NCBI RefSeq assembly: GCF_000379665.1
Contig: NZ_KB903369.1
Span: forward strand, 202 to 64,201
Length of the DNA stretch: 64,000 bases
Direction of reading: 5' to 3'
Source of the DNA: Butyricimonas synergistica DSM 23225
GTDB taxonomy: Bacteria > Bacteroidota > Bacteroidia > Bacteroidales > Marinifilaceae
The notes below the pieces were generated by a model, which was not told where the DNA came from, made no database searches, and was given only the letters and a program-made list of their open reading frames with translations. The position numbers and the translations under genes are program-made. Position 1 is the stretch's first letter. Each line of letters opens with the position of its first letter. Below are positions 1 through 18,323 of this stretch, piece after piece.

Positions 1-594
1 TTGCAGGGTGTTGTGGCTAAAGCATTATTTACTATTGCGCCGAGGGTTACATTGACGGCTCATTTGTCAAAAAATCCTTACACGGTTAAGGATTACTATG
101 ATGATTTGTATGCTGGAATTTGGGAACCGACAATTCAAAATAGAAAACTAACTGATGGCGATAAATTAATGCAAAGACTTTGCGTGGCTCAAGGGGCTGA
201 CGTTGTAGGAAAAGCTATTGCCCCGAAGAAAGGAATCACTGGCTTTGGCGATATGATTCCTGCAATTGAACTTTCCATAGATGAGGTGATTGAGTCGGGT
301 ATGGATAAAACTGGCGACGTGCGTCGTTACCGGGATCAGTTGAAAGCTTTCGAGGCTGAATACGGTCAAGGTCTGGTGGCATGCCAGATTGCAACATACA
401 ATGTCTTCGGTGCGGATCCTTACGGGTGGCAGAGAGCCGTGAAAGTTGATACCATTGACGAATCTCTGGGGTACAATGTAGATATGTTGAATCGGATTCA
501 AAAATTGATAGAGAGTCGACTTGCTGGTGCGAATGCAGCAGATAGAGCTCATTATCAATCAATCTTGCTTCAAATAAAAGCATTAAGTAAATAA
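1..594 (+). CDS. C-terminal part of a large protein, possibly a zinc-dependent metalloprotease (5' end outside window)
   Basis: The reading frame is open from the first base, so this is the 3' part of a longer gene; the TTG at position 1 need not be a start. The 197 visible residues contain a D-x-x-A-G-I-W-x-P block near residue 36 followed by a helical stretch, and end in a charged helix with an A-D-x-A-H-Y motif. This pattern resembles the C-terminal helical region of the large Bacteroidota zinc-dependent metalloproteases (DUF5117/DUF4953 type), but the HExxH catalytic part would lie upstream and cannot be seen. The family call is therefore tentative. A strong terminator follows within 25 bases, so this gene ends its own transcription unit. 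Confidence 0.45.
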   Translation: MQGVVAKALFTIAPRVTLTAHLSKNPYTVKDYYDDLYAGIWEPTIQNRKLTDGDKLMQRLCVAQGADVVGKAIAPKKGITGFGDMIPAIELSIDEVIESGMDKTGDVRRYRDQLKAFEAEYGQGLVACQIATYNVFGADPYGWQRAVKVDTIDESLGYNVDMLNRIQKLIESRLAGANAADRAHYQSILLQIKALSK

Positions 595-617
595 AATATT
601 ATTTTTCTCTACAAGGA

Positions 618-648
618 GAGCGTGCCAGTCCATGGTACGCTCTTTTTG
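618..648 (+). terminator. Rho-independent terminator of the first gene
   Basis: A 10-bp stem (arms 618-627 and 633-642, one G-T wobble) closes a 5-base loop and is followed directly by five T. It lies 24 bases after the stop codon at 594. Confidence 0.85.
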
Positions 649-1520
649 TTGTCCCGCGCTAAGTATTCAATGAAGTTGGTGAACGATCTTATTTTTCACC
701 TTGAAATAATACTTCTCGTAAAATATGATAGATCATTGAAAGAAAGTTTTTTAACTTTTTTTATATTTGTCAGCGAAAAGTGTGCTCGAATATGAATACT
801 GGCAAAGCGGAATTAATTGCGGGTATCAGAAACCGTAGAAACAATTTCGTTTTGTATTACGATGAGGTTGAGTTCGTTCTCTAAATATTACATGAAATGA
901 ACTAATTTTATTATCATTGATATTTCTTTGAAAAAAGAGCATAAGAAGCTTTTCTGTAATTTTTTGACGTATCTTTATAACATGGCGTCTACATGTAATC
1001 AACGTAATCATGAATGAATTTTTGTGCGATTATTAGACGGTGTAAATTTAAGGATTCAATCTGTGAATAGTATTTGGACACCCTACCCGAAGGTGTTGTA
1101 GAAAAAAGACTTTTGCCCTTCGTTTCCTTCCCATCCCAAATATCATTATACGATCGTTTAATGCAATACAAAAATAATAATATTTTCTTTAATAGAAAAA
1201 TTTGTATTACATATTTTTATTTAGTGACACATAGCCTATTGTGAATTGTCTAAATGCGCAACTCAATATTTTTTTTACGCTATCAATTAATGATCAATTA
1301 ATAACACAATAAATGGAAAAATAAATTTTGCTTTTACTCTTTATTTAACTCTCAGTTTTGATGAAATAATAATTATTAATTAAAAAATTTTCAATTAACA
1401 AAAATGTTTGTATATTGCAATGTTTTTTTAATGACGATCTTTTTTTGATAGGCACTAAAAGATTTTGATCAATAAGAATTTCATTGTGGTGCGGAAGTAA
1501 AACTAAAATATTATTTAAGC
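649..1520. other. AT-rich intergenic region without a recognisable gene
   Basis: About 870 bases, strongly AT-rich. Short open frames on the minus strand (for example 826-1011) show no start context, domain or codon bias that I recognise. A weak ACACC/GGTGT stem lies near 1078-1098. The leader of the nine-gene operon starting at 1521 must begin here, but I find no promoter matching the Bacteroidota consensus well. Confidence 0.5.
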
Positions 1521-2960
1521 ATGAAAAGATATACATCTATCCTATGTATCATGATGTTATCTGTCGGTAGTTATGCCCAGTCAACGGGTACGACTGCCGT
1601 TGATTCAATTCGTAAGCAATTTGAAAAGGAGGCAACACAGGCTGTTTCTGATTTTGAAGCATACAGTAAGAAGGCACGTGAGGAATACGAAAAATACGAG
1701 GCGCAGGCACGTGCTGACTATTCCCGTTATACCCGCTCTATCAAACAAACGTGGGGGAACGACAGCATTATAGATAACACCCCGACCCAATGGGTTGAAT
1801 ATAGTGATGATTACCAAAGTCGTTCCATCGTGGATTTTGACAAAGGAAAAATTCTCGTGGAAGTAGCACTTGAGGATGACGGCACGACAGATCCCACTGT
1901 GATAAATGCCCGTCTCACCGCGGCTATTGAGGAGATTTTGAGCAGCCGGGGATCGACTTGCCCCTACTTGTCTTCCGTTGACGTGTCACAGCCCTTAACT
2001 ACAGCTCCCGTGCTGGAGGGTCTTGTAGACTTTTCCATGTACCGACCTGATACATCATTGGTTTCAACGGGTAAAGATCCAATTCCCGCTCGTGCAGCAC
2101 CGCCCACGCCGACAGTGAAAGGGAAAAAACTATCTCTCAATCAAAGCCAAACACGAAAAGTAACCACAGACACGACGGGGACAACGATGGCTCGCCGCAA
2201 ACAAGAAGAAGGTAACAAGGGCAACGATAATCCTCTTGCAGGCAAGCGTGAGGAAGCCCACCGGCGAGCCGAACAAAAAGTACAGACATGGCAAAAGGAT
2301 GCAGAGAAAGCTTCTATCGTTAAAGCGATTGTCACGCAAAGCAAAAAAGAGACCGTTAAAGTAAAAGGGGACGACGGGAAAGTACGCCAAGTGGTACAGA
2401 TCCAAATGAGTCTCGTTTCAGACAACCTTTCGAAAAACGCAACTCTCTACAAAGAATTCGTGGAAGAATTCTCGCGAGTCTTCCAAATAGAACAACCGCT
2501 TATTTTTGCCGTGATGGAACAAGAGTCCCGTTTTAATCCCGAAGCCACGAGCTGGGTTCCCGCTTACGGGTTAATGCAATTGGTTCCCACTTCCGGCGGA
2601 TTGGACGCGTACAACTACGTGTACCGAACCAGTTGGGTTCCGACACGAAGCTATCTTTTCGTTCCTCGCAATAATATCGAGTTGGGCACAGCCTATCTCC
2701 GTGTCCTCATGAATCAATTCGCATCAGTTTCCGACCTGAATTGTCGCAGACTGTGTGTTATCGCCGGGTACAACACCGGGGCTGGAAACGTGAGCAGGGC
2801 TTTTACCGGGGCAACGAATTTGAAGAAAGCGATTCCGTTAATAAATAAATGTAACTACGAACAGTTGTATGATCACCTCACGAATCGCTTGAGCACGAGC
2901 GAAGCTCGGAATTACGTTTCAGGAGTGAGCAAACGACGGGAAAAATATCTCAAACCTTAA
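1521..2960 (+). CDS. Exported MltC-like lytic transglycosylase
   Basis: Residues 1-19 form a signal peptide (hydrophobic core, then S-Y-A-Q). Residues about 20-125 are a charged helical segment followed by a block that reads I-K-x-x-W-G, then V-E-Y-S-D-D-Y-x-S-R-S, then D-F-x-x-G-K-I. This is the pattern of the N-terminal domain of MltC (DUF3393). A low-complexity linker rich in K, R, E and T spans roughly 190-270. The C-terminal SLT domain (about 310-479) has the catalytic Glu at residue 335 in E-S-R-F-N-P, then G-L-M-Q-L and A-G-Y-N-T-G-A-G-N. Known members cut glycan strands in peptidoglycan, releasing anhydromuropeptides. There is no lipobox, so it is predicted periplasmic. It is the first gene of a nine-gene run; the next start is 12 bases downstream, so its job is probably tied to that system. 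Confidence 0.88.
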   Translation: MKRYTSILCIMMLSVGSYAQSTGTTAVDSIRKQFEKEATQAVSDFEAYSKKAREEYEKYEAQARADYSRYTRSIKQTWGNDSIIDNTPTQWVEYSDDYQSRSIVDFDKGKILVEVALEDDGTTDPTVINARLTAAIEEILSSRGSTCPYLSSVDVSQPLTTAPVLEGLVDFSMYRPDTSLVSTGKDPIPARAAPPTPTVKGKKLSLNQSQTRKVTTDTTGTTMARRKQEEGNKGNDNPLAGKREEAHRRAEQKVQTWQKDAEKASIVKAIVTQSKKETVKVKGDDGKVRQVVQIQMSLVSDNLSKNATLYKEFVEEFSRVFQIEQPLIFAVMEQESRFNPEATSWVPAYGLMQLVPTSGGLDAYNYVYRTSWVPTRSYLFVPRNNIELGTAYLRVLMNQFASVSDLNCRRLCVIAGYNTGAGNVSRAFTGATNLKKAIPLINKCNYEQLYDHLTNRLSTSEARNYVSGVSKRREKYLKP

Positions 2961-2972
2961 AAAGAAATAACA

Positions 2973-4703
2973 ATGTTTTGTCCGGAATGTGGTAATCATA
3001 TAGAAGATCAGAATATTCATTTTTGTCCGGAATGCGGGGCAAAAATAAAACAGGACAGTCATGTCGAGAAAAACACTCCTGACTCTCAATCCCAAGGAAC
3101 GGGTATTCACGGGTTGATTTTTACAAACGTGGGTTTACTGGCTGAAAAAATGGAAATTGACGAGCAAGATTTATTGTCCATTCTTGATGAATTTATCAGA
3201 CAGAAACGAGAATACGGTATCTCGTATAAACTCGTTGATGCCGGTAACTACTCTTACCAGAAGAGCGGTTTCTGGGGAAATAACAAGACGGTTTGTTTGA
3301 CGCTGAATAGCCCGCTATGGGATTACATGGATATACTGATGGATGTGCATAATGGGGAGAAGAAAACGGGAAGCGAAATGTCACAATACCTATTTATTAT
3401 AGGAGGTAACGATATTATTCCCATGCCGTGTATCCACCACTACATCCCGGATGACAGCAACGATGACAGCATTGACACGGATATGCTTTACGCCTATCCC
3501 TACGGTAAAGAAATGCTTGCTTTACTTGAAAGTCAGGAAGCGTTTAAATACGACCAGTTATTTTTCGTGGGAAGATTACCGTTCGGGAATGATGCCTCGC
3601 TAGAAGATTTGTGCGGGTATCTGGAACGGGATATCAATTATTCCAACGGAATCCCGATGAACGAGGCCTACGGGCAATGCGATCCCCATTGGAAGAAAGT
3701 ATCAAGCCGCGTGGCAAACGATCTTCTGCAAGGTAATTATTTACGCAATTTAGACCGTTACCTGTCAGCGGATCACTACTATAATCGCCTGATTCTTTCT
3801 CCCATGGTTGTAGAGGAAAATGTCGGTCAGGTTTTCCACACGAATGCTTCCCTGTACTATTTTAACCTCCACGGCGGGGAGGGACGGGAAGCTCGCGGTT
3901 ATTTTGGCGTCATGCTCCACCAGGAAAAAGACGGATGTTGGTCTGTCATCGAACCGGAACACATGATGACCTGTGAGGCTCCCAATATCATCATCAGCGA
4001 GGCCTGTTACGGGGGACGTTTTATCGGGTTGGACAAGCACCACAGCATGATGCTGGCATCCCTCTTTACAAACACGTTGACCTTCGTGGGGTCATCACGC
4101 GTAGCCTGGGGAGCCGTTGATTCCTCATCCTCTTCTGCATCAGACATTCCGGTAAGTTATGCGGATATAGTAGCCAATAATTTTATAGATGCCATCCTGA
4201 AAGGATATTCCGCGGCCGAAGCATTATTTATTGCCCGTAGTGTCTTGCTTCGGAGCACCATACCGGGTGATCCGCACGCCGCTCTAACAGTCGTGGAATT
4301 TAATCTTTTCGGGGACCCTACAACCACGATGGATTCCCGCTCAGGCTTGAAGTCCGGTCGTTTTACGACCGGGAAGAATGCTTTAGCTGCTCAAGATGCT
4401 AAAATAGGATGCACGGTGGAGAAAATCGAAACGGGAAACAGGGGTAACTCTATTCTTGAACAGGTGCGCGGAGCCGTGAATGCTAATATTCACCAGATAC
4501 ACGAGATGATCGGTCAACACCTGTATGTCAATTACGGTATAAAACCACGCCCGGTAGAAGAAATTTTAAAAATAAAATATAACAACGGACAGGAAGAGTT
4601 GAAATTCAATTACGACCTGACTTCCGAAAGGAAAACCCCGACCCGTTTTGTTGTCACGACAAGCACGGACGGGAAAATCAAGAGTGTTTATACAACGAGA
4701 TGA
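2973..4703 (+). CDS. Zinc-ribbon clan-CD cysteine peptidase (gingipain/caspase fold), cytosolic
   Basis: No signal peptide. The first 22 residues form a zinc ribbon (C3, C6, C18, C21; two C-P-E-C-G knuckles). After a linker, the body follows the layout of peptidase family C25 and other clan-CD enzymes: a beta strand ending I-I-G-G-N-D-I-I-P-M-P (near residue 145), a D-T-D-M-L-Y segment, a strand with F-V-G-R-L-P, the catalytic-type histidine H300 in N-L-H-G-G, and a cysteine C345 in I-S-E-A-C-Y-G-G. The His-Gly and x-A-C-x-G pair after hydrophobic strands is the clan-CD dyad. The last about 100 residues are unassigned. Secreted gingipains have signal peptides and adhesin domains; this one has neither, so it probably acts on cytosolic targets. 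The substrate is unknown. It lies 12 bases after the transglycosylase gene and 35 bases before the zinc-ribbon SPFH gene. Confidence 0.8.
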   Translation: MFCPECGNHIEDQNIHFCPECGAKIKQDSHVEKNTPDSQSQGTGIHGLIFTNVGLLAEKMEIDEQDLLSILDEFIRQKREYGISYKLVDAGNYSYQKSGFWGNNKTVCLTLNSPLWDYMDILMDVHNGEKKTGSEMSQYLFIIGGNDIIPMPCIHHYIPDDSNDDSIDTDMLYAYPYGKEMLALLESQEAFKYDQLFFVGRLPFGNDASLEDLCGYLERDINYSNGIPMNEAYGQCDPHWKKVSSRVANDLLQGNYLRNLDRYLSADHYYNRLILSPMVVEENVGQVFHTNASLYYFNLHGGEGREARGYFGVMLHQEKDGCWSVIEPEHMMTCEAPNIIISEACYGGRFIGLDKHHSMMLASLFTNTLTFVGSSRVAWGAVDSSSSSASDIPVSYADIVANNFIDAILKGYSAAEALFIARSVLLRSTIPGDPHAALTVVEFNLFGDPTTTMDSRSGLKSGRFTTGKNALAAQDAKIGCTVEKIETGNRGNSILEQVRGAVNANIHQIHEMIGQHLYVNYGIKPRPVEEILKIKYNNGQEELKFNYDLTSERKTPTRFVVTTSTDGKIKSVYTTR

Positions 4704-4738
4704 AAAACTTAAGGTGAAACCATAAAACGCTATAACTT

Positions 4739-7003
4739 ATGAATTGTCCTAAATGTAATGTCGTTCTTCGTCCGGATGTGAAGTTTTGTACTTCCTGTGG
4801 GCAAAAAATAGAGTCATCGACCACATGTACCCAATGCGGTTCCCCGTTAAAACAGGGAGCCAAATTCTGCATTAAATGCGGTCAGCGGGTAGTTCTTACT
4901 GAAAAAACATCTACGCCTTCGCAAGAAACTCCGTCAGACATCAATTCTGTCAAAGGACGTATTTATTGGAATATACAACCGGGACAAGTAGCCCGCGTGA
5001 TCAACGAGGCAGAATTCGATTCCTATAACAATATTCAAGGGATCATTATCCCGGAAGGAACAACAGCTTATATCCGCGCCAACGGGCACACGATTGCTTC
5101 CATCAGCGGGGGCACGTACAATTTCACGGGTTCCCCTTCCTCCACGTTCGGGAGTACGCCACGAAAAGGCTGGGAATTTATCATCAACCTGTTCAAAAAA
5201 CGCAAGAAAGAGGAGAAATCAGCAACGGAAGAGCTCTACCAGCAGCAACAGGATTCAATCCTGAAAAACGCACAAAAGGGGGCAGCCTTTTCAGTTGTCA
5301 TTCTACTGGATAAATCATTCCCGCTACTCTTCGGTTCCCGGCAAGGGCAACTTGACGATTACAAAGATTTTGTCCCGATGAAGATACAAACCCGATACCT
5401 TGATATGGCATTGGGAGTTAACGCTTATTTCAAAATTTCGGACCCGGAACTATTTATCGTTCATTACCTGACCGAACGCCCAATGCTGAACACGACTGTC
5501 ATCGTGGACGAGATCTCGGATAGCATCCGGAACGTGTTGCAAGAAACGTTGTATGACACGGAATTATCCTCCAACCGTATTCCCCAGGAACTTCATGCGT
5601 TACTTAAAGACAAGATCAACACCGTTGCGGCGGAAGCTTTCTTCGGGATTTCCGTCGTGCGTATTGTCGAGATTTCCGCCACTAGCGAAGACCTGGAACG
5701 ATTCAGGGTATTGAGCCGCGAGCTCTATCTCTCGGAACAAGAGTTGGATTACCTTCGGCGCACGAATGACTTCAAGAACCGAATGGTCGACACGGTGAAT
5801 GCACAACGATTGCATGAGGCTGCGACCGATCTGGATTTGGATAAACAATTGGAAGCGATTAATCATGACAAATTATTGCATGAAGAAGAGGTAGAAAAAT
5901 TCAAATATTTCCTGAGAAACGAACGCATCGTACGCGAGGCTCAAAACGACAGCGAACGGGATGCGGCTCTGCTGGAAATCGCAAAAACGGGACTGATTCA
6001 GGAAGATGAAATACATGCGTTGCAGGATCAACTGGAAACGAACAGCTACCAACGGGGTATGTTGTTCCAGATGATGCAACTTCGTGACGGCATCGAATTC
6101 GAGCGTACCCGCATGGAAGGAGAAGCTGAAAAAGCAACCCTGATCGTCAAGAAAGAACTTGAATTGCAAGGTCTGCATGACGATTACTCGGATAGTCGTT
6201 TTTATAAAGAAGTTGAAAAACAACGTACCGTTGCCGAAACCAATCTGGATTTGGAGCAACGCGGTCGAGACATGGACTATAATGACGCTAAACGTATGCA
6301 CGACATGGAACGGGAAGATGATGACACTCAATTCCAGCAGTTCATGGCGATGCAAAACGCGGAAGAACAGACGAAAGAAAATCAACGCAAGCATGATGCG
6401 GAAATGGAGCAAACCCGTCTAAAGAATGCCGAGGAAATGGAACGTCTGAAATGGGAAAATGCCAAAGAACTTTCCGATGAAAAAGTCTGGGCGTTAAATG
6501 GTGGGGAAGCTGCCGTTGCGTATGCAGAAAATAAGTACAGTTCGGAAGCAGAACGAGAAGCAAGCGAATGGTTGGAAGCACAGCGGCGAGAATTGGATGC
6601 CCGTTTGGAGAATGAACGAGCTTCGCGAGATTCCGAACACCGGGAAAATCAATCGCAAATGTTCCAGATGATGCGTGACATGATGACCATGACCGGAGGT
6701 ATTCAAGCCCAGAAAGTGGATGAAAAAGATCGCCAGTTACATGAACGTGAAGAACGTATCCTACGCCAGGAGGGACGAATGGATACTGCTTATGACCGGG
6801 CACTGGATTACTCGACCCGTGGCAACATTCCGCAACAAACGCCTAACGTGCAAGCAGGACAACAAGGCTCTCAGCAACAACAAGTACAAGCACAACAACA
6901 GCCTGCGGCAAAAACAGTTGTGTCGATCACTTGTCCTGAATGTGGGGCACCGTTGGAAGCTGGAATTCAGTTCTGTTCGGATTGCGGGGCGGGAATCAAG
7001 TAA
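4739..7003 (+). CDS. Zinc-ribbon / SPFH (band 7) / coiled-coil protein with C-terminal zinc ribbon
   Basis: Two zinc ribbons open the protein (C3-x2-C6 with C17-x2-C20, then a second pair at about 31-49). An SPFH/band 7-like domain follows (about 70-340). A long charged coiled coil (about 340-680) is rich in E, R, Q and K and carries many M-x-x-M repeats. A Q-rich linker (about 695-725) leads to a last zinc ribbon (C-P-E-C-G ... C-S-D-C-G). There is no signal peptide or obvious membrane segment. SPFH proteins assemble into rings or scaffolds at membranes, and zinc-ribbon members of this type resemble the 'virion core protein'-like bacterial SPFH family. The same C-P-x-C-G knuckles occur in the preceding peptidase and in the gene at 7388, suggesting that the ribbons let these proteins bind each other or a shared partner. 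Confidence 0.85.
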   Translation: MNCPKCNVVLRPDVKFCTSCGQKIESSTTCTQCGSPLKQGAKFCIKCGQRVVLTEKTSTPSQETPSDINSVKGRIYWNIQPGQVARVINEAEFDSYNNIQGIIIPEGTTAYIRANGHTIASISGGTYNFTGSPSSTFGSTPRKGWEFIINLFKKRKKEEKSATEELYQQQQDSILKNAQKGAAFSVVILLDKSFPLLFGSRQGQLDDYKDFVPMKIQTRYLDMALGVNAYFKISDPELFIVHYLTERPMLNTTVIVDEISDSIRNVLQETLYDTELSSNRIPQELHALLKDKINTVAAEAFFGISVVRIVEISATSEDLERFRVLSRELYLSEQELDYLRRTNDFKNRMVDTVNAQRLHEAATDLDLDKQLEAINHDKLLHEEEVEKFKYFLRNERIVREAQNDSERDAALLEIAKTGLIQEDEIHALQDQLETNSYQRGMLFQMMQLRDGIEFERTRMEGEAEKATLIVKKELELQGLHDDYSDSRFYKEVEKQRTVAETNLDLEQRGRDMDYNDAKRMHDMEREDDDTQFQQFMAMQNAEEQTKENQRKHDAEMEQTRLKNAEEMERLKWENAKELSDEKVWALNGGEAAVAYAENKYSSEAEREASEWLEAQRRELDARLENERASRDSEHRENQSQMFQMMRDMMTMTGGIQAQKVDEKDRQLHEREERILRQEGRMDTAYDRALDYSTRGNIPQQTPNVQAGQQGSQQQQVQAQQQPAAKTVVSITCPECGAPLEAGIQFCSDCGAGIK

Positions 7004-7033
7004 AACTATTTTTCAATTCAAAGACTAAAAGAT

Positions 7034-7375
7034 ATGACAACCATTCACGGAATCTTGGAATGTCCCCTACTGGATGCCGGTTCCAAATCGGAAGGTCGAA
7101 AAGCCATTCTGACAGATGATGACGGGAAAAAATACAAACTCTACCGGGCTGGAATGTTACCGGCGGGCGACCCGTTCTTCATCCCCTACGACGGGATGCA
7201 CGTCGGGATTCGCGGAAACGAGGAAGAAGAAACGGGAAGTTTTCTCGTTACCTCCATTTTACTGGACGACGGCACGGAAGTTTTCCCTCAACCGGTGGAA
7301 TTTCCCGCCGGGGAACCGATCGAACTTCCTTTACCCCGCAAATCAAAGAAACTATTGAAAAAGAAAAACAAATAA
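7034..7375 (+). CDS. Small uncharacterised protein of the zinc-ribbon/SPFH operon
   Basis: 113 residues, no signal peptide, no membrane segment. The body looks like a small beta-rich domain, with alternating hydrophobics and several G/D turns such as D-D-D-G-K-K-Y. It ends in a strongly basic tail (K-S-K-K-L-L-K-K-K-N-K). I recognise no family. It lies 30 bases after the SPFH gene and 12 bases before the next gene, so it is cotranscribed. Size, charge and position would suit an adaptor or small subunit, but that is inference. Confidence 0.75.
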   Translation: MTTIHGILECPLLDAGSKSEGRKAILTDDDGKKYKLYRAGMLPAGDPFFIPYDGMHVGIRGNEEEETGSFLVTSILLDDGTEVFPQPVEFPAGEPIELPLPRKSKKLLKKKNK

Positions 7376-7387
7376 ATACACAAAGTA

Positions 7388-8581
7388 ATGAGCAAAGAGA
7401 GATTTTGTCCGGAATGTGGTCAGCCTTTGGAAGCAGATGAACGCTTTTGTCAGGATTGCGGGGCGGAAGTTCCGTTTGAGTCAAATACCGGTACGAATAG
7501 TGCAGAGGCCACGCTGAACAAAGTGAAGCCTTCGGAAACGGATGAACCGATTATTGGTGCGGGAGCACGTGCAAACGTCACCGGAGGCATCAACAAAACT
7601 TCCACCACTCACGCCAATATCAACACATCAAGTGTCGATAATTCTTCCACAGTCCATCACAACACGACAATCGTTATGGGAAAAGAGGGAACCGAATATT
7701 GTCAAGTATGCGGAAATCCCTTCGACGAGAGACACGCCCGGTGTCCTAAATGCGGGAAAGAAATTTGCTTTGATTGTAAAGTAAAAGGAAAGAACCGTTG
7801 TGTGGAATGTGAAAAGAAATCCATCAACGAATACCGTCTTGCTTTCCAGCAATTACTCCTGACGACCAATGGGAACATCGGCATCGCCGGGCGGCAAATG
7901 ATGGATCAGAAAGCCAGGGAGCTGGACGTGGAGAACACGAAAGCCGATATTGAAAAAGAAATGACGGAAACATACAAGCCGACAAATAAAGCCACACAAC
8001 CTGCCGTGGTGGACCTTCCTGCCCGGGATGAATCCGTTCAATCACAAGAATCAGGTCAAAAGGGTGTAGGAGCCTTAACTGGTGCGCACCCTCACCCCAC
8101 TCCCCGGTCAGGCACGGGAAAAAACAAGTGGATACCCCTGAGTGCCGTCATACTCATTGTATTTGTCGGTTATTTTTTCCTGTCAAGAAAGGATCAAGCT
8201 CCCGCGGAAACACCCGTGAAACCTCCAACAGAACAAAGAGAGTGTGTTACACCAAAATCTTCTCCTGCCGCGAAACCGGAGGCAACTCCTCCCGCGACGA
8301 CTTCCGTGAAAAAGGAAGAACAACCCGTAAAAGCAGAACAACAACCCGTGGTGGAGAAGAAAGATGCGGACTATGATGCCGGGAAGATCGCTTATGACGA
8401 AGGAAAAGGACTGGATGCCGTTCGTCTTTTCAAAAAATCCGGAAGCGCGAAATCTTATTACATGCTGGGATTAATTTATGAAAACGGTTGCGGTACGGTT
8501 GCCAGCAACGGGATGATGGCACGGAAAAATTTCAAAAAAGCAGCCGATATGGGAAATAAAGAAGCTAAAGCAAAATTGTAA
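7388..8581 (+). CDS. Zinc-ribbon membrane protein with Sel1-like repeat
   Basis: Starts with a zinc ribbon (C7, C10, C21, C24). A second, denser cysteine cluster at about 99-140 has C-x2-C, C-x2-C, C-x2-C and C-x2-C pairs with an R-H, consistent with two more zinc sites. A single membrane segment lies at about 247-266. A P/K/E-rich spacer (about 270-335) follows, and the last about 45 residues form a Sel1-like repeat (Y-Y-M-L-G-L-I-Y-E-N-G ... A-A-D-M-G-N-K-E-A). With no signal peptide, the ribbons should be cytosolic and the Sel1 part periplasmic. It would thus join the cytosolic half of the operon (peptidase, SPFH) to the exported half (CsgG-like, LPP20, transglycosylase). Sel1 repeats usually bind proteins. 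Confidence 0.8.
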   Translation: MSKERFCPECGQPLEADERFCQDCGAEVPFESNTGTNSAEATLNKVKPSETDEPIIGAGARANVTGGINKTSTTHANINTSSVDNSSTVHHNTTIVMGKEGTEYCQVCGNPFDERHARCPKCGKEICFDCKVKGKNRCVECEKKSINEYRLAFQQLLLTTNGNIGIAGRQMMDQKARELDVENTKADIEKEMTETYKPTNKATQPAVVDLPARDESVQSQESGQKGVGALTGAHPHPTPRSGTGKNKWIPLSAVILIVFVGYFFLSRKDQAPAETPVKPPTEQRECVTPKSSPAAKPEATPPATTSVKKEEQPVKAEQQPVVEKKDADYDAGKIAYDEGKGLDAVRLFKKSGSAKSYYMLGLIYENGCGTVASNGMMARKNFKKAADMGNKEAKAKL

Positions 8582-8619
8582 ACGATATACTATTAACCTC
8601 TAATTAAAATTTTATTGTT

Positions 8620-9534
8620 ATGCTAAAAAGAATTTTCACGTGCCTGACTCTACTGTGTGTGGTAGTGATGGCGGTCAAAGCACAAGAAGTAAAAAAACCG
8701 CGGATGTATGTTGAACGTTTCACTACAGCGAATGGAGTTGGGGACGCGGACAGCGACAAAGTTCGTCAGACAGTTATGGCTGCCCTCAACAAGACAAAAC
8801 GTTTTGAACTGGTAGACCAAGACGCCGAGTCATCCATGAAGCAGGAAGAAAAACGCCGTACGGATGAAAAAGCGATGAGTGACGAAAAAGCCCGTACGCA
8901 AACCATTTCCGCGGCTGCCCACGATTACCTCCTGAGCGCTAACGTGTTGGCTTGCTCCGTGAAATCCCAGCAACAAGACGGGAAAACCATGTATTCCTGC
9001 GTTTTGAAGTATTCCGTAACCGTGACTGAAGTTGCCACGTCAACGACAGTCGCGACAGCGACATTTGACCATTCTCCTTCCGGAGTAGGTGGTACGTTGG
9101 GTAAAATTTTGGATTTATCGGATTCACAAGAAAAAGCCATTGCCAGCGCTACCAACATGATTGCAAGTGATATCGAGGACTTCCTGATCAAGGAATTCCC
9201 GTTGGAAGGTACCGTTATTCCCATGGACTACGAGGTAAAGAAAGACAAGCTGGTGAAGTGTTACATTGACTTAGGTTCAGACCATGGCGTCAAGAAAGGA
9301 GATTATTTCTCTATTTTAACTCCCAGCGTAAGAGCCGGTCGCACGACGTACAGCGAGGTGGGTAGAGTGAGAGTGGAAGAGGTTGTTGACGGAACCATGT
9401 CACAATGTAAAGTAGTGCAGGGGGACAAAAAGATATTCACCGCCATGGACGCCTTTCAGGCTCTTGACGAGGCAACTCAAAAGAAACAGCCCTTGAAAGT
9501 AAAAGCGACCGTGGCTCCTTTATTCTCATTATAA
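8620..9534 (+). CDS. Exported CsgG/LpoB-like protein
   Basis: Signal peptide of about 21 residues ending V-K-A-Q, without a lipobox cysteine. The following 180 residues have the CsgG/LpoB-type layout: a first strand, V-R-Q-T-V-M-A-A-L-x-x-T-K-R-F-E-L-V-D, a charged helix, A-x-D-Y-L-L-S-A-N-V, then C-V-L-K-Y-S-V-T-V-T-E-V-A-T-S-T-T-V. The C-terminal part has a D-L-G-S-D-H-G-V-K-K-G-D-Y motif typical of a small beta-barrel 'FlgT/CsgG-associated' domain. Relatives form outer-membrane complexes or activate penicillin-binding proteins. Gap to the previous gene 38 bases, to the next 11. Confidence 0.65.
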   Translation: MLKRIFTCLTLLCVVVMAVKAQEVKKPRMYVERFTTANGVGDADSDKVRQTVMAALNKTKRFELVDQDAESSMKQEEKRRTDEKAMSDEKARTQTISAAAHDYLLSANVLACSVKSQQQDGKTMYSCVLKYSVTVTEVATSTTVATATFDHSPSGVGGTLGKILDLSDSQEKAIASATNMIASDIEDFLIKEFPLEGTVIPMDYEVKKDKLVKCYIDLGSDHGVKKGDYFSILTPSVRAGRTTYSEVGRVRVEEVVDGTMSQCKVVQGDKKIFTAMDAFQALDEATQKKQPLKVKATVAPLFSL

Positions 9535-9545
9535 TTCGTTTTTTT

Positions 9546-10796
9546 ATGAATAAAATAGTAACCATACTTGGTATTCTGATACTTCTCTTTACAACTTCCG
9601 CGAAAGCCCAAGAGTATCTTCAGATTGTTTCGCTGGAATCTGAAAAAGGGGCGAACGCCGTTTTTTCTTCGGCAGGAATAGCTGACAGTAAAAAAGGAGT
9701 TGAAACAGATGCCATCAAATCACTCATCTACACCCTGTTCTTTCAGGGTGTAGAAGGTGTTAATGACGGGAAACCCTTGGTTAGCAAGCCCAACGAGGCA
9801 TATACCAATACTTTCTTCAACAACCTGGCTCGTTACACGGCTTATATTGTCAGTACCGAAGAAGCCGTTAAAACCTCGAAAGTAGGCGGGCGTTTCCAAG
9901 GAACCACGCGAATCACCTTGCGTCTTCGACAATTGATCAATGATGTACGAAAAAATACACATTACGAAGAGACCGTCGCGGAAGCACCCAATCCCCGTCA
10001 TCCCAAACCGACCATCATTGTGGTTCCCTACAAGAAAACGGGAGAAAGTTTTCAGGCAATCCTGGAAAATGACAGTGACAGTCGTATTGCCATAAGCGCC
10101 GTGCAAAAAGGACTTGAATCGTGTGACATTAAAACGATTGACTTACAAGGACGTATCGATGCCATGCATCGCCGGGGGCAATATGAAGAAAATGCCGGAG
10201 CCGCGGAATCCAATGATAAACAACTTTTGATGTCTTCTGGTGCGGACGTTTATGTCACCGTGGACTTGATGAAAGATTACACGGCAGAGGATGCCCGCGT
10301 GGCACTGGTCATGAAAGCCTATGAAACTGCGAGCGGAACAATCTGGGCTTCGGAAGACGGCTGGACGAATCGTTTTCGTACCACGAACACGGAAGCCCTG
10401 TGTTCTTATGCCATAAAAGATCATCTTCCCGCTTTCCTAGAACAAATCATTAAAAACTTTTCCCTTCCCGCTCGTGTCGTTTTGCAAATATCCATCAGTG
10501 AAAATTCAGCGGGTTCCTTACAGGATGCTTGTTGTTCAAACGGGGAGAGAATCGTGGACTTTATCCAGAATTGGCTGGATCGCAACGCGCATGACGGTGA
10601 TTATCATATACAAGGAATCATGGATGAATCAGCCATCTTTGACTACGTGATGATTCCCAAGCAAGACAAAGAAGGTTATAAAATGACCTCCTCCAAGTTC
10701 GCTAAGGCACTGAACGACCAGCTCAAAGCGCAAGACGTTTCGGGTACAATCCGCATCGATGGGAACACGATTTTGCTGATGCTGGACTTGCAATAA
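9546..10796 (+). CDS. Exported DUF6175-like protein
   Basis: A signal peptide of about 21 residues ends T-S-A-K-A-Q. Residues 25-140 carry a conserved-looking block with S-L-I-Y-T-L-F-F-Q-G-V-E-G and T-T-R-I-T-L-R-L-R-Q-L. The middle part (about 155-310) again looks like a CsgG/TolB-N-like alpha/beta unit (I-I-V-V-P-Y, then L-M-S-S-G-A-D-V-Y-V-T-V-D-L). The N-terminal block matches my memory of the Bacteroidota family DUF6175, whose function is not known. It starts 11 bases after the CsgG-like gene and is 25 bases from the LPP20 gene. Confidence 0.6.
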   Translation: MNKIVTILGILILLFTTSAKAQEYLQIVSLESEKGANAVFSSAGIADSKKGVETDAIKSLIYTLFFQGVEGVNDGKPLVSKPNEAYTNTFFNNLARYTAYIVSTEEAVKTSKVGGRFQGTTRITLRLRQLINDVRKNTHYEETVAEAPNPRHPKPTIIVVPYKKTGESFQAILENDSDSRIAISAVQKGLESCDIKTIDLQGRIDAMHRRGQYEENAGAAESNDKQLLMSSGADVYVTVDLMKDYTAEDARVALVMKAYETASGTIWASEDGWTNRFRTTNTEALCSYAIKDHLPAFLEQIIKNFSLPARVVLQISISENSAGSLQDACCSNGERIVDFIQNWLDRNAHDGDYHIQGIMDESAIFDYVMIPKQDKEGYKMTSSKFAKALNDQLKAQDVSGTIRIDGNTILLMLDLQ

Positions 10797-10821
10797 GTAA
10801 TAACAATAAAAAAAGAAAAAC

Positions 10822-12165
10822 ATGCGAAAGATCATTTTAGGCTTGTTACTTTCGATATGCAGTGTTTTCTACGCGGAGGCACAAGAACCAGACTGGGTAA
10901 CCCAACGCCCGACCTCGTCTGACGCTTACATCGGTATTGGTATCGCCTCGTTGTCGGAAACCGATTACATGAAAAAAGCAACCCAGAATGCCTTGACCGA
11001 CATCGTTTCACAGATTGCCGTGAAACTTGAAAACAACTCTTTTTTACATCGGGTGGATGTAGACGGGAAAACACGGGAGATGTTGGAAGACAAAATTCAT
11101 AGCACGATGGAATCCTGGCTGGAAGGACAAGAATTGAAAGGGAGCTACCAGTCGGAACAAAAATACTACGTGTATTACACGCTGGATAAAAAAGTATATG
11201 CCCGGAAGGCAGAAGAACGCAGGCAACAAGCGGTAAGGACAGGTATGGATTACCTGCAAAAAGGTCGTACCGAAGAAAAAAACATGAATCTTTCGCAGGC
11301 AGCCCAGCTCTACGGCAAAGGACTGGAAGCGGTGGAACCGTGGGTATTCATGGATCTGACGACAGAAGCGGGAGGCGTATTCGTGAATGTCCCCGTTGAA
11401 CTCTATAACGCTTACGTGAATGTATTCAGCGGAATGACCATCACGACCAATGTCACGATGGTGGAAGGAGAGGCTTTTAAAGCCATTGCCGACCCGATCG
11501 CCGGATGCCTTTCCAAAAACGGCGTTGTTGTTCCGAATGTAAAATTGAATGCATCATTCGCGGTGGGCAATGGCACGGTCTCTCCCGCCATACAAACAGA
11601 TTACACGGGTACAGCGGAATTCTACGTGACCAACATTACTTCTAAAGACGACGTGCAGGAATTGCGCATCACGATCGACGACTCGTTCATGAGTACCCTC
11701 CCGAAAGCATATCGCCAACTGTTGCAAAACCAAACGTGGCCCTCTGCCAAAATCACTATTTCGTTGAAAAGCGCACCCATCACCGCCTACCTGCACGTGA
11801 GCGAAGATCATGAACTGGAAGGGTGTGAACGCCAGATCAGCAGCTTGCTGACGAACAATTATTTTTCCCTGTCAGAAGACCCGGATGACGCCCAATGCTT
11901 CGTGGAACTGTCAACAAAGTTAGACATGGGAGAAGTCGTAACTGGGGGTGTTTATGACCTGAATACCTGTTATTGCACGATTGTTCTCAAAATTTACAAT
12001 AACAAGACACAACAAATGCTCTTGAACTATTCAGCAAATCAAATTAAAGTGTTAGTACCGGTAAACAAGTCTGCTACGGCATCTATCTCGATGTGCGTGC
12101 GGGAAGTAATGAAACGAGTGAATCGTGAACTACCAAACCAAATCAAAAAACTCAAAATCAATTAA
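10822..12165 (+). CDS. Exported LPP20-domain protein
   Basis: Signal peptide of about 20 residues (ends A-E-A-Q). Residues 24-150 show the LPP20 layout: E-P-D-W-V-x-x-R-P, A-Y-I-G-I-G-I-A, A-T-Q-N-A-L-T-D-I-V-S-Q-I-A-V, then Y-Y-V-Y-Y-T-L-D-K-K-V-Y-A. A helical segment at 150-185 with A-A-Q-L-Y-G-K-G-L-E-A-V resembles a single TPR. The C-terminal about 250 residues contain Ig-like and CsgG/LPP20-like alpha/beta parts. Named for a Helicobacter lipoprotein, LPP20 domains are widespread in secreted and envelope proteins and often occur beside CsgG-like genes, as here. The biochemical role is unknown. Confidence 0.65.
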   Translation: MRKIILGLLLSICSVFYAEAQEPDWVTQRPTSSDAYIGIGIASLSETDYMKKATQNALTDIVSQIAVKLENNSFLHRVDVDGKTREMLEDKIHSTMESWLEGQELKGSYQSEQKYYVYYTLDKKVYARKAEERRQQAVRTGMDYLQKGRTEEKNMNLSQAAQLYGKGLEAVEPWVFMDLTTEAGGVFVNVPVELYNAYVNVFSGMTITTNVTMVEGEAFKAIADPIAGCLSKNGVVVPNVKLNASFAVGNGTVSPAIQTDYTGTAEFYVTNITSKDDVQELRITIDDSFMSTLPKAYRQLLQNQTWPSAKITISLKSAPITAYLHVSEDHELEGCERQISSLLTNNYFSLSEDPDDAQCFVELSTKLDMGEVVTGGVYDLNTCYCTIVLKIYNNKTQQMLLNYSANQIKVLVPVNKSATASISMCVREVMKRVNRELPNQIKKLKIN

Positions 12166-12176
12166 AAAGTAATATT

Positions 12177-12734
12177 ATGAAACATTTTGTCTTATGGGGA
12201 ATGGTTGTAGCCATATTTTCTTTATTAAGCAGTTGCGGTTCTTCAAAAAAGATTCAGGAAAAAAGTCCTGTTTCCACTTATATCTTGCCGGGAACCGATC
12301 TCATTAGCGGGGATGGCGTACTTCGGGGATGGGGGTCCGGCAGATCCGACAGCGAGGCGTCTGCCCGGAAAAAAGCCCAAATGGCTGCTTCAGCCGAATT
12401 GGCAGCAATATTGTCCAAAACCGTAGAAGCGACAACGGAAGAATACTCGACGATTTTATCCGAAGGCTTATCAGCAGAATCCAAATCCCTCCTCAACGAT
12501 AAAACGAAGGTAACGGTAAAACAGACTCTAGCCGGGGCTGCCATCATATTCGACCGTTGGAGCAAAGATGAGGAAACCGGACAATTAATCAACTACATTG
12601 TTTTGGAACTCAAAGGAGAGGACTATTTAAAACAACTGTACAAGGAATTGGGTAAAAATAAAGCTACTTCAGTAGATAAAGATTTGTTACAACGCCTCTT
12701 TTTGAAGCACATCGACGAAAGTTCAAAAAAATAA
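12177..12734 (+). CDS. LPP20-type lipoprotein, last gene of the operon
   Basis: A short signal peptide with lipobox L-S-S-C (Cys 20) predicts a lipoprotein. The rest is a compact LPP20/CsgG-like domain: L-R-G-W-G-S-G, then A-R-K-K-A-Q-M-A-A-S-A-E-L-A, then a central helix and Y-I-V-L-E-L-K-G. It lies 11 bases after the larger LPP20 gene and closes the run started at 1521; no terminator hairpin is obvious right after it. As an outer-membrane-anchored partner it would complete the cytosol-to-outer-membrane span of this system. Confidence 0.7.
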   Translation: MKHFVLWGMVVAIFSLLSSCGSSKKIQEKSPVSTYILPGTDLISGDGVLRGWGSGRSDSEASARKKAQMAASAELAAILSKTVEATTEEYSTILSEGLSAESKSLLNDKTKVTVKQTLAGAAIIFDRWSKDEETGQLINYIVLELKGEDYLKQLYKELGKNKATSVDKDLLQRLFLKHIDESSKK

Positions 12735-13088
12735 GGTAATTATATACTAGATTACACATTCAATTTTTGTACGTAAAATTATAATAATAAAATATCTATT
12801 TATATATTTGTCGTTGGCTAAATTTAGCGAATTAAATTGTCGTTTGTATTAAACTTAAACAAAATGCCTATGTAAAAATCGCCAAGACTAAAACATATTA
12901 CTAAAATATATAGCGTGTCCGCACCCTAAAATCGCCAATTTTAACGCATGGGACACGGTGATTCTCTTTTGTGGATCACTGTCCTCATGCAAAGGTGTTT
13001 GGCGATACCTAGGGTTCGGGATGGTGGTCCACGCTTTATGTATAGACTATTGTGCCACCTTTTGTCTAACATATTATACATATGATAT
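12735..13088. other. Intergenic region with an imperfect palindrome
   Basis: 354 AT-rich bases without a gene. It contains CGTGTCC (12914-12920) facing GGACACG (12951-12957) with a nested TAAAAT/ATTTTA stem. It also has ATCGCCAA near 12880 facing TTGGCGAT near 13000. These inverted pairs may be a decayed mobile-element end or a structured leader; nothing ties them to a known family. Confidence 0.4.
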
Positions 13089-13301
13089 ATGGAGGAAATA
13101 TTGAGATTCCTGTTAAAAATAATAGGAGGTATTTGTTGGCTAATGTGGCTCGTTACCTTAATACTTCCATACGTGATAATAGCTGCAAAAATATTTGATT
13201 GGATAGATATAAGCTGGAAGATTGTTGTTATCACGTATGTTGCTTGTTATTTTGCCAAATGGGTATTTTCTATCATTTGGGTTGCTATTTTTGATTACTA
13301 A
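13089..13301 (+). CDS. Small two-segment membrane protein
   Basis: 70 residues with two hydrophobic segments (about 5-33 and 42-66), rich in I, W, V and L, with few charges. No family recognised. The ATG sits behind a poor ribosome-binding site, as is common in this phylum. A symmetrical hairpin terminator starts 12 bases after the stop codon, which supports a real transcribed gene. It stands apart from the 1521-12734 operon. Confidence 0.5.
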   Translation: MEEILRFLLKIIGGICWLMWLVTLILPYVIIAAKIFDWIDISWKIVVITYVACYFAKWVFSIIWVAIFDY

Positions 13302-13307
13302 AGATAT

Positions 13308-13337
13308 AAATAAAGGGGGATCATTCCCCCTTATTTC
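13308..13337. terminator. Bidirectional terminator between convergent small genes
   Basis: Stem AAGGGGGA/TCCCCCTT (13313-13320 with 13325-13332), 4-base loop, flanked by A-rich sequence on the left and T-rich on the right. It can end transcripts from both the 13089 gene and the minus-strand gene whose stop codon is at 13331-13333. Confidence 0.75.
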
Positions 13338-13477
13338 TTCTTAGGCTTACATTTCAACATCCTTTCCAACATATGATCTATCTCCGTAGCCTTGGATGGT
13401 TTCTTGGGGATGATCTTTTTAGCAGGCTTTTTGGGAGCCACTTTTTTTGTTGGTTTATTTGGTGTTTTACTTGGCAT
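13331..13477 (-). CDS. Short lysine/proline-rich basic protein
   Basis: A 48-residue minus-strand frame with stop TAA at 13331-13333, inside the convergent terminator. The sequence is built of K-x-P-K-K-P units (T-P-N-K-P-T-K-K-V-A-P-K-K-P-A-K-K), then a helix (T-E-I-D-H-M-L-E-R-M-L-K) and a basic tail. This resembles the small histone H1-like nucleic-acid-binding proteins of bacteria, but it is not assigned to a family. A purine stretch (AAGAAG) lies just upstream of the ATG. The minus-strand gene at 13539 is 61 bases upstream and could be cotranscribed. Confidence 0.55.
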   Translation of the reverse strand: MPSKTPNKPTKKVAPKKPAKKIIPKKPSKATEIDHMLERMLKCKPKKK

Positions 13478-13538
13478 CTTCTTGTATATATTGTCATGTA
13501 AAGTTAATCAATATTTGAAAAAAATCAATATTAATAAA

Positions 13539-14204
13539 CTATACATTTACATTATGAGGATCATGTTTATCAACATCTTCAACATTAATCCCCTTTTGCT
13601 CAAAATACTTATCTCTTATTAAAACGCCTAATATATTGGTATATGACATTAAGGCATATCCATTTTTAAAAGCAATACTTTTGATTTTTAAAAAATCTTC
13701 TTCTGTGAAGAATTTTTCAGGTTCTGCAAATGCTGTTTCAATACAATATGTTTGTATATCGTAAGGGTTTTTACAAGTAACATCTTTTTCTAAATGTTCA
13801 TATATTGTATTCCAATTATTGTCTACAATAGAATTAAGATTATGTTTATTTACTTCTTCTAGTCCTTTTTTCGTTAAAGAGATTGGACTATTACTTTGGG
13901 TAAGATTTTCATGCGAACTTTTTTGAAGTGATTCTATTGATCCTTTGATTATTGCAATATCTTTCAATAAATCAAAAAATAATCTATTAACATCATCAAC
14001 CTTATTTTCTAGTTTTGTGCAAATTTTATCTTGATTATCTATGATTGTTTTATTGTTTTCCATGTTATTCTTATGTTCTGATCTTATTTGTGTGATATTT
14101 ACAACTATCCAATGATAAATCCATCCTATTAATAAGAATATTAATAATACGGTTGCAAACGAACCCGCAGGACTCATAAGTATATCTCTCAAAAGTTCAA
14201 TCAT
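13539..14204 (-). CDS. Single-pass membrane protein with coiled coil, unknown function
   Basis: 221 residues: a membrane segment near the N-terminus (about 14-36), then a coiled coil of about 80 residues (many N, K, E; D-D-V-N-R-L-F-F-D-L-L-K-D-I). A globular C-terminal part (about 110-221) holds a pattern of F-F-T-E-E-D-F-L-K-I-K and Y-T-N-I-L-G-V-L-I-R-D-K-Y. I do not recognise a family. AT content is clearly higher than in the loci after 20 kb, which together with the neighbouring transposase suggests acquired DNA. Confidence 0.7.
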   Translation of the reverse strand: MIELLRDILMSPAGSFATVLLIFLLIGWIYHWIVVNITQIRSEHKNNMENNKTIIDNQDKICTKLENKVDDVNRLFFDLLKDIAIIKGSIESLQKSSHENLTQSNSPISLTKKGLEEVNKHNLNSIVDNNWNTIYEHLEKDVTCKNPYDIQTYCIETAFAEPEKFFTEEDFLKIKSIAFKNGYALMSYTNILGVLIRDKYFEQKGINVEDVDKHDPHNVNV

Positions 14205-14256
14205 ACCTTTTCATGCTTAAATGCTACTACAAAGGTATGATTTAATTGATTAAATT

Positions 14257-15325
14257 GTAACTAAAATTATAGTATAATTATAATAAAAATAGTAATTAGC
14301 TTGTATCTAATAACATATAAAATTTAGTTTATGCTACTAACTCCTTATACGTTATTCTGTGATTTGTGTTTTGCAAGAAGTAATTAAACATCTCCGGTGG
14401 TGTCATTTCTCTAGTATTACGCCGGAAGACAAATTCCCACATGTATTTTTGCAAGTGCTTTGGGCTGGTATAATGATACATACCTATAATACCTCTCTTT
14501 ACTATTCCCCAAAAACCTTCAACGGTATTCGTGTAAACATCCTCGTGCCCGTATATCCCCTTCCCGTGATCCACGAAATCATGAACGTAAATTTCCTTGA
14601 CATTGTTATAGCCGCACCACTCGTCCGAGTACAATGTAGCGTTAGTGTTCACGGTATTCAATATAGCGGGCGTAAGGCTTTCTTTTGAAGTGTCTTTAAT
14701 CACGTGAGCGACTGCCTTTCCACCCCTTTCAATCATCCCTATGACTGGCGTCTTGTCCTTGAAAGAACGTCCTTGGCACTTTTTCACTTTTTTATCCTTG
14801 TGCCTGTTTTTGTTCTTGCCACCGACAAAAGTTTCATCAACTTCCACGATGCCGGAGAGTTCACTATCATTTTCAAAAGCGAAGCAAACACGTATCCGGT
14901 GCAACATGAACCAAGCTGTCTTCTGTGTCACTCCAATGTCACGGGATAATTGGCAAGATGAAACGCCTTTTTTATGTGATAAGGTCATCCACACAGCCAT
15001 GAACCACTTCTTTAATGAAATTTTAGAACCTTCAAAAAGAGTTCCGGTCTTGACGTTGAAATATTTCCCGGTATTCTTGCATCGGTATTTGTGTCCCTTG
15101 CACTGGTAGACCACTGAATCGGGGTCAAAAGGAGAAAGGATGCCGTCATGCCACCTTAAATATTCAAGATGCTCAATGCAGGATTCTTCCGTGGGAAAGA
15201 ATTTGTCTAAATCTGCTAATGACTTGAACTTTTCTAGTTGTAACATAACGGCTTTTCTTTTAACAAATATAGTAAAAAGAAGGGAGTCGGAAAAATTTAT
15301 TTGGTGTAATCTTCTATATAGTTAC
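14257..15325 (-). mobile_element. IS1595-family insertion sequence, boundaries tentative
   Basis: The intact transposase implies an insertion sequence. GTAACTA at 14257-14263 faces TAGTTAC at 15319-15325 and could be the inner part of the terminal inverted repeats. I see no convincing 8-bp target duplication outside them, so the ends are uncertain. Confidence 0.4.
14329..15246 (-). CDS. IS1595-family (ISXO2-like) transposase
   Basis: 305 residues. The N-terminal zinc-ribbon-like segment (C49-x-G-H-x-Y-R-C55, then G-K-Y-F-N-V-K-T-G-T-L-F) is typical of the IS1595 group, although one cysteine pair is incomplete. The DDE catalytic residues are visible: D127 in V-E-V-D-E-T-F-V-G-G, D208 in L-Y-S-D-E-W and E243 in N-T-V-E-G-F-W. 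The length is normal and the frame intact, so it may be active. The terminal inverted repeats are only weakly visible (see the element entry). Confidence 0.92.
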   Translation of the reverse strand: MLQLEKFKSLADLDKFFPTEESCIEHLEYLRWHDGILSPFDPDSVVYQCKGHKYRCKNTGKYFNVKTGTLFEGSKISLKKWFMAVWMTLSHKKGVSSCQLSRDIGVTQKTAWFMLHRIRVCFAFENDSELSGIVEVDETFVGGKNKNRHKDKKVKKCQGRSFKDKTPVIGMIERGGKAVAHVIKDTSKESLTPAILNTVNTNATLYSDEWCGYNNVKEIYVHDFVDHGKGIYGHEDVYTNTVEGFWGIVKRGIIGMYHYTSPKHLQKYMWEFVFRRNTREMTPPEMFNYFLQNTNHRITYKELVA

Positions 15326-15402
15326 CAAAAATAAATAATCATTCAACACGGGTGTGTTAAAAATCTTTTTTCACCTTAAAACTCCTCCGTCGGCTTCGCC
15401 GC

Positions 15403-18321: not shown

Positions 18322-18323
18322 AG

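What the first reader, a model, noticed from the sequence alone, without database searches (positions are those of the whole stretch)
1521..12734. Nine-gene zinc-ribbon / SPFH / clan-CD protease / LPP20 / lytic transglycosylase operon
Seen: nine co-oriented genes with gaps of 11-38 bases; three carry the same C-P-x-C-G zinc ribbons (2973, 4739, 7388), and the set covers cytosol (protease, SPFH), inner membrane (Sel1 protein), periplasm (transglycosylase, CsgG-like, DUF6175-like, LPP20) and outer membrane (LPP20 lipoprotein). Known: SPFH proteins scaffold membranes, clan-CD proteases are regulated death or processing proteases, and CsgG/LPP20 proteins form envelope complexes. Inferred: shared zinc ribbons bring the protease to an SPFH scaffold that signals through the Sel1 protein to an envelope assembly with a peptidoglycan-cutting enzyme. 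This would be an envelope stress, lysis or defence-type system that I do not know as described.
Basis: partly seen in the sequence, partly recalled or inferred. Interest (0 to 1): 0.85.

Follow-up and report, generated by a model that had tools for sequence, protein, structure and literature searches.

The report
Movable membrane-scaffold operon with intracellular protease
A block of nine genes that moves as one unit between related gut bacteria joins a membrane scaffold, an intracellular protein-cutting enzyme with its own small partner, and cell-wall and outer-membrane parts, which suggests an alarm that links damage at the cell surface to protein cutting inside the cell.

Summary
In detail: nine co-oriented genes with gaps of 11-38 bases. 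Genes 2-9 recur in the same order in two rumen Bacteroidales MAGs (g2-g8 at 28-49% protein identity); gene 1 (MltC-like) is missing from both. In Butyricimonas 4 of 6 genomes carry the operon, at three chromosomal places; the site used by two carriers is empty in the other two, and DNA homology ends at the gene-9 stop codon. It travels as one cassette.

It is a composite of three modules that also occur apart: (i) a divergent intracellular C25 protease (g2) with a small GSKSE-motif partner (g4), found together in 10 of 10 plasmid records (about 7 distinct) and one other Bacteroidota genome; (ii) a zinc-ribbon SPFH protein and a zinc-ribbon membrane protein, as in YdjI/YdjG; (iii) an LpoB-like/DUF6175/LPP20 envelope set. 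PspA is absent (0 of 6).

The shared-ribbon argument is only partly supported: the g3 C-terminal and g5 ribbons match strikingly, the protease ribbon does not. Best guess: envelope damage, read by the envelope set, frees or redirects a scaffold-held protease. Trigger, target and outcome are inferred.

The parts
1366..1520 (+). upstream region shared with the G010 copy; likely holds the promoter
   Evidence: blastn match between window and G010 copies starts at 1366; the match with the G009 copy starts only at 1647
1521..2960 (+). g1, MltC-like lytic transglycosylase with signal peptide; accessory
   Evidence: SLT 82.8 bits, Mltc_N 36 bits; absent from L010 and L011
2973..4703 (+). g2, intracellular C25-like cysteine protease with N-terminal zinc ribbon; His300 and Cys345 are the presumed catalytic pair
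   Evidence: Peptidase_C25 31.1 bits; His and Cys invariant in 14 of 14 aligned relatives; no hydrophobic segment
4739..7003 (+). g3, SPFH-type scaffold protein with two or three N-terminal and one C-terminal zinc ribbon and a long coiled coil
   Evidence: zinc ribbons; model and Foldseek matches to stomatin, prohibitin, HflK/C, flotillin
7034..7375 (+). g4, small partner protein of the protease, G-[ST]-K-S-E motif
   Evidence: no Pfam family; relatives directly downstream of C25 proteases elsewhere
7388..8581 (+). g5, zinc-ribbon protein with one membrane segment (246-264) and a Sel1-like C-terminus, probably periplasmic
   Evidence: DZR 33.2 bits, Sel1 22.7 bits, below cut-off; hydrophobic segment
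8620..9534 (+). g6, LpoB-like / FlgT_C-like exported protein
   Evidence: LpoB 22.5 bits, FlgT_C 20.1 bits, below cut-off
9546..10796 (+). g7, exported DUF6175 protein
   Evidence: DUF6175 165.7 bits
10822..12165 (+). g8, exported LPP20-domain protein
   Evidence: LPP20 42.5 bits
12177..12734 (+). g9, LPP20-like lipoprotein (lipobox LLSSC)
   Evidence: LPP20 15.5 bits, below cut-off; homologue follows g8 in L010 and L011, E 6e-15 and 3e-15 with a model from Butyricimonas alone

Best explanation
A movable, composite trans-envelope system. Shown: one gene cassette of three modules, kept in order across two lineages. Inferred: the SPFH protein (g3) forms a scaffold at the inner membrane, anchored by the zinc-ribbon/membrane/Sel1 protein (g5), as YdjI is anchored by YdjG/YdjH. 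The C25 protease (g2) is docked there and is held in check, or given its target, by its partner g4. The envelope set (g6-g9) lies in periplasm and outer membrane and reports wall or outer-membrane damage to the outer part of g5; MltC (g1), where present, makes room in the wall or releases the fragment that is sensed. On damage the scaffold changes state and the protease acts on targets in the cell, giving a stress response, growth arrest or death. Which of these outcomes is right is not decided.
For: Order of g2-g9 kept at 28-49% identity (g2-g8) in L010 and L011; movement as one block; His and Cys invariant in 14 of 14 proteases and the GSKSE residues G, K, S, E in 14 of 14 partners; protease and partner found in the same 10 of 10 plasmid records from either query; SPFH fold matches; g3 C-terminal and g5 N-terminal ribbons 16 of 21 identical; SPFH next to a zinc-ribbon/membrane gene in 11 of 20 loci of ordinary YdjI-type genes; the YdjI precedent with wall-synthesis defects on loss of YdjG or YdjH (PMC8581546, passages).
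Against: No contact, expression or phenotype data. SPFH model weak; g2 model unusable. The protease ribbon is not specially like the scaffold ribbons. Outside the operon the protease-partner pair has no SPFH or envelope partners, so its link to the envelope is peculiar to this operon. Sensing by g6-g9 is inferred from location alone.
Confidence: 0.35

Rival explanations
1. Assembly or export machine: g6-g9 build an outer-membrane/periplasmic ring or export complex, MltC opens the wall for it, and SPFH plus protease process or quality-control its parts or cargo.
For: LpoB-, FlgT_C- and LPP20-type domains together (that FlgT and FlgP, an LPP20 protein, form flagellar outer rings is recalled); a specialised lytic transglycosylase is usual for envelope-spanning machines (recalled); the envelope set also exists alone.
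Against: No pore, ATPase, polymerase or obvious cargo gene in the operon; MltC absent in rumen operons.
Confidence: 0.25
2. Anti-phage or other conflict system in which the protease is a death effector triggered by envelope attack.
For: Cassette present in 4 of 6 genomes of the genus at three sites, including a site with other variable content; protease-partner pair on plasmids (conjugative for 7 of 10 records), beside a caspase gene in L167 and L168 and beside an AbiE-type toxin-antitoxin pair in L174.
Against: No PADLOC match; no relatives in viral contigs or phage records; four of the plasmid contexts show metabolic or peroxidase genes or are unannotated.
Confidence: 0.2
3. Housekeeping-type membrane quality control: SPFH ring with a partner protease, as HflK/C with FtsH, removing damaged membrane or exported proteins.
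For: SPFH fold matches include HflK/C-FtsH.
Against: C25 is not an ATP-driven unfolding protease (family knowledge); patchy presence and movement do not suit housekeeping; the protease also lives without SPFH.
Confidence: 0.12
4. The modules are only neighbours by chance of transfer and do not work together.
For: Each module is also found without the others.
Against: Same order over deep divergence with tight or overlapping genes, and movement as one block.
Confidence: 0.05

Closest known systems
Bacillus subtilis pspA-ydjGHI operon (Psp-type envelope stress system)
   Same: SPFH protein with C-terminal zinc ribbon and a membrane protein with N-terminal zinc ribbons in one operon; membrane and wall link (PMC8581546 and PMC11237479, passages)
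   Different: No PspA in 6 of 6 Butyricimonas genomes, no YdjH-like gene seen in the operon; a C25 protease with partner and an outer-membrane set instead
Ordinary YdjI-type SPFH plus zinc-ribbon/membrane gene pairs of Bacteroidota
   Same: Same two-gene idea; Band_7_1 family over cut-off in 57 of 198 class genomes, including the window's own at another place
   Different: g3 does not match PF13421; no C25 or envelope genes in the 20 loci examined
C25-partner pairs of rhizobial and Novosphingobium plasmids and of G597
   Same: Homologous protease and GSKSE partner
   Different: Protease without zinc ribbon; neighbours vary, no SPFH or envelope set in the annotated contexts
DUF6175 / LpoB-like gene sets of Bacteroidota
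   Same: g6-like gene near DUF6175 in 4 of 11 loci, g9-like lipoprotein in 1 of 11
   Different: No g2-g5 relatives there; in the loci viewed the g7 N-terminal part lies in a separate gene
HflK/C-FtsH
   Same: SPFH scaffold joined to a protease (structure matches)
   Different: Other protease family, other compartment layout

Membership tests
Psp / ydjFGHI system | PspA (PF04012) | tested here: not met
   0 of 6 genus genomes; the control search rings in 9 of 14 known genomes
Psp / ydjFGHI system | SPFH protein with C-terminal zinc ribbon plus zinc-ribbon membrane protein | tested here: met
   g3 and g5; SPFH from a weak model
SPFH / Band 7 | match to a curated family model (PF01145, PF13421) | tested here: not met
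   no hit for g3 at E 1 in Pfam
SPFH / Band 7 | SPFH fold followed by coiled coil | tested here: inconclusive
   pLDDT 57; Foldseek best matches SPFH, E 3e-6; hhalign E 0.002
Peptidase C25 | Pfam PF01364 over cut-off | tested here: met
   31.1 against 23 bits; in the whole-genome search 3 of 4 genus copies are over, G008 at 22.6 is not
Peptidase C25 | catalytic His and Cys | tested here: met
   invariant in 14 of 14 relatives; the match to the known catalytic residues is by motif, since profiles from ordinary C25 proteins did not align the region
Type IX secretion C25 (PorU) | exported protein in a genome with T9SS C25 genes | tested here: not met
   no hydrophobic N-terminus; g2 is the only C25 match in G000
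MltC | NCBIfam equivalog NF008670 | tested here: not met
   179.5 against 375 bits; Pfam SLT and Mltc_N are met
LPP20 (g8) | PF02169 over cut-off | tested here: met
   42.5 against 25.9 bits
LPP20 (g9) | PF02169 over cut-off | tested here: not met
   15.5 against 25.9 bits
LpoB (g6) | PF13036 over cut-off; NCBIfam TIGR02722 | tested here: inconclusive
   Pfam 22.5 against 22.3, NCBIfam 25.4 against 110.55
Known anti-phage defence systems | PADLOC model match | tested here: not met
   best E 0.012
Known anti-phage defence systems | protection from phage | not testable with these tools
   needs a plaque assay

The most novel reading that the evidence does not exclude
The protease and its GSKSE partner are an ancient, transferable switch: the partner is an inhibitor or the activating substrate (the invariant Lys in G-[ST]-K-S-E would suit the Arg/Lys preference recalled for C25 enzymes). 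In Butyricimonas and rumen Bacteroidales this switch was wired to an SPFH platform and a whole-envelope sensor, giving a system that turns outer-membrane or wall damage into intracellular proteolysis.
Probability: 0.17. Interest if true: 0.85.

Novelty: new variant of a known kind. Interest (0 to 1): 0.6.

Why it matters
If right, it is a route by which a Gram-negative cell couples the state of its wall and outer membrane to a protease in the cytosol, in gut and rumen bacteria; the six Butyricimonas genomes tested have no PspA. It also points to a two-gene protease-partner module that recurs in distant bacteria and on plasmids, and that can be tested at once with two purified proteins. The cassette's coming and going gives natural strains with and without it.

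Tried and rejected
Rejected: a T9SS explanation of the C25 gene (no signal peptide seen, only C25 match in the genome). Rejected: an ordinary Psp system (no PspA). No support for phage origin: no relatives of g2 or g3 in viral contigs (for the G597 protease) and none in phage records for g3 or the G597 protease; these scans reach close relatives only. Ribbons as proof of protease docking: tested, not supported for g2; some of the 62 comparison ribbons come from loci fetched because they matched g2 or g3 ribbons, which makes that test strict, and rumen ribbons were not tested. Structure of g2: model too weak (pLDDT 44), not searched. PDB sequence searches gave only zinc-ribbon or chance matches. 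hhalign and a profile from ordinary C25 proteins did not align the whole domain (one search used 5 of 11 sequences, the other 6 having been read on the wrong strand and dropped; one search used 15). Rfam: nothing in 1-16000. Promoter and terminator scan: fewer sites than in shuffles. g2 and g3 profile searches elsewhere gave mostly zinc-ribbon matches; only G597 proved a protease relative. A last search of 118 phylum genomes with the wider protease profile found the window's own only: the protease is rare in Bacteroidota. Ten paper searches showed no description of this operon or of the C25-partner pair in titles, abstracts or the passages read; the library is open-access only. PMC10936438, PMC11237479, PMC8581546 and PMC7159879 were seen as passages, the rest as listings.
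Full report
What is there. The window lies near the start of contig C11 of a 4.77 Mb genome. GC is 46-47% in the 2-kb bins from 2001 to 12000 and 34-37% in the bins on either side.

Conservation. The g2 protein is in 4 of 56 genomes of the family, all in this genus, where 4 of 6 genomes have it. A scan of one genome for each of 84,980 species with two short peptide patterns gave three loci: Marseille-P3923 and two rumen Bacteroidales MAGs, RUG715 (L010) and RUG454 (L011); the patterns limit its reach. All nine genes are present in order in L005, L006 and L007 at 66-90% protein identity; g8 is split over two ORFs in L005. In L010 and L011, g2-g8 follow in order at 28-49%, with g9 after them (L010:18670-19248, L011:18701-19279; E 6e-15 and 3e-15 with a model built from Butyricimonas only). 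No g1 relative was found there; a gene of unknown family lies upstream. In drawn samples only the window's own genome had a full-length match to the g2 or g3 profiles: 1 of 395, 1 of 345, 1 of 395. As a whole the system is rare.

Movement. In G010 and G008 the operon lies between a MATE-like gene and a lytic-transglycosylase-like gene (my reading of the proteins). In the window's own genome and in G009 the same flanks are 23 and 22 bases apart without the operon, which lies elsewhere; G006, without the operon, has neither MATE nor operon there; G007, without the operon, has an unrelated block of SusC/D-like and sigma-factor-like genes. DNA homology of the window with the G010 copy runs from 1366 to 12734, the last base of g9; with the G009 copy from 1647 to 12734. 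The operon therefore moves as one piece, by a route I did not find; no ORF of the cassette matched a recombinase family.

Module 1, protease and partner. The six-member g2 profile found one more protease, in G597 of another family of the class (E 3e-13); tblastn with g2 found weak matches in 4 Rhizobium plasmid records. Directly downstream sits a small protein that the g4 profile recognises (8e-10 for the Rhizobium one, 2e-7 for G597, among five candidates). tblastn of the plasmid collection with the G597 protease gives 10 records; with the Rhizobium small protein, 10 records; they are the same ten, and a second pair of queries gives the same ten. Some are near-duplicates (three of one Rhizobium type, two of Bradyrhizobium), so about 7 are distinct. 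In the 8 loci examined gene by gene the small gene follows the protease on the same strand, overlapping or within 60 bases; in the Bradyrhizobium locus the g4 profile itself gave no hit, only the Rhizobium protein did. The His of the N-x-H-G motif and the Cys of the C-[YF]-G motif are invariant in 14 of 14 proteases, and G, K, S and E of the GSKSE motif in 14 of 14 partners. In the window operon the pair is parted by g3. Inhibitor, adaptor and substrate all fit for g4.

Module 2, scaffold and anchor. g3 has no Pfam SPFH match. Its AlphaFold2 model is weak (mean pLDDT 57), but Foldseek ranks stomatin, prohibitin, HflK/C, flotillin, erlin, QmcA and vault proteins among the first 20. Ordinary YdjI-type genes (PF13421) are over cut-off in 57 of 198 class genomes, the window's own included; in 11 of 20 loci fetched they neighbour a gene with a zinc-ribbon pattern and one hydrophobic segment, and none of the ORFs listed there matched the operon models at E 0.1. 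g3 and g5 look like a divergent form of that pair. The last ribbon of g3 and the first of g5 are 16 of 21 identical and better matched than any of 62 other ribbons; the g2 ribbon is not special.

Module 3, envelope set. DUF6175 relatives occur in 12 of 247 class genomes, the own genome included. Of the 11 other loci, 4 have a g6-like gene nearby and 1 (L051) also a g9-like lipoprotein gene (E 5e-7 with the Butyricimonas-only model); none showed a g2-g5 relative.

Reading. Three modules that occur apart have been put together and kept together. The nearest functional model is the B. subtilis pspA-ydjGHI operon: YdjI and PspA need YdjG and YdjH to reach the membrane, and loss of these disturbs wall synthesis under alkaline stress (PMC8581546, passages). 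Here PspA is absent from 6 of 6 genomes and a protease with its partner stands in the effector place. I infer an envelope-damage-gated protease. Shown: gene set, order, movement, module structure, conserved presumed catalytic residues. Inferred: scaffold assembly, docking, gating, trigger, target and outcome.

Limits. Structure models are weak, contacts were not modelled, there are no expression data, and the statement that nothing was found in print rests on ten searches of one open-access library.

Noticed in passing
L005:17703-19057: g8 of the G010 copy is split over two overlapping ORFs, a possible frameshift or sequencing error.
   Followed up: no
window 15700-16626 (+): Lipoprotein-like gene with a Gln_deamidase_2 domain (PF18626, E 2e-24), just beyond the operon in the AT-rich stretch.
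   Followed up: partly
window 17695-18884 (-): Two adjacent exported genes; the second reads like a papain-type peptidase by eye but has no Pfam match.
   Followed up: partly
window 14329-15246 (-): IS1595-type transposase (PF12762, E 6e-46) 1.6 kb downstream of the operon; no such gene was looked for at the other copies.
   Followed up: partly
L167 and L168: On Rhizobium plasmids the C25-partner pair lies within a few kb of a caspase-family gene, a chitosanase and an L,D-transpeptidase-family gene; L167 also has a lysozyme-annotated gene.
   Followed up: partly
L170, L173, L174: In other plasmids the pair sits near radical SAM, ferritin-like and, in L170 and L174, tryptophan 7-halogenase genes; L173 and L174 also have serine protease genes.
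   Followed up: no
G243:C1:907041-908174, G187:C1:2408660-2410011, G102:C19:8714-9819: Neighbouring zinc-ribbon genes in other Bacteroidota picked up by both the g2 and g3 profiles; not examined.
   Followed up: no
L043, L044, L051: A DUF6175-centred gene set with an LpoB-like gene, undescribed in the papers searched (0 papers hold the term DUF6175); recurs across Bacteroidota.
   Followed up: partly
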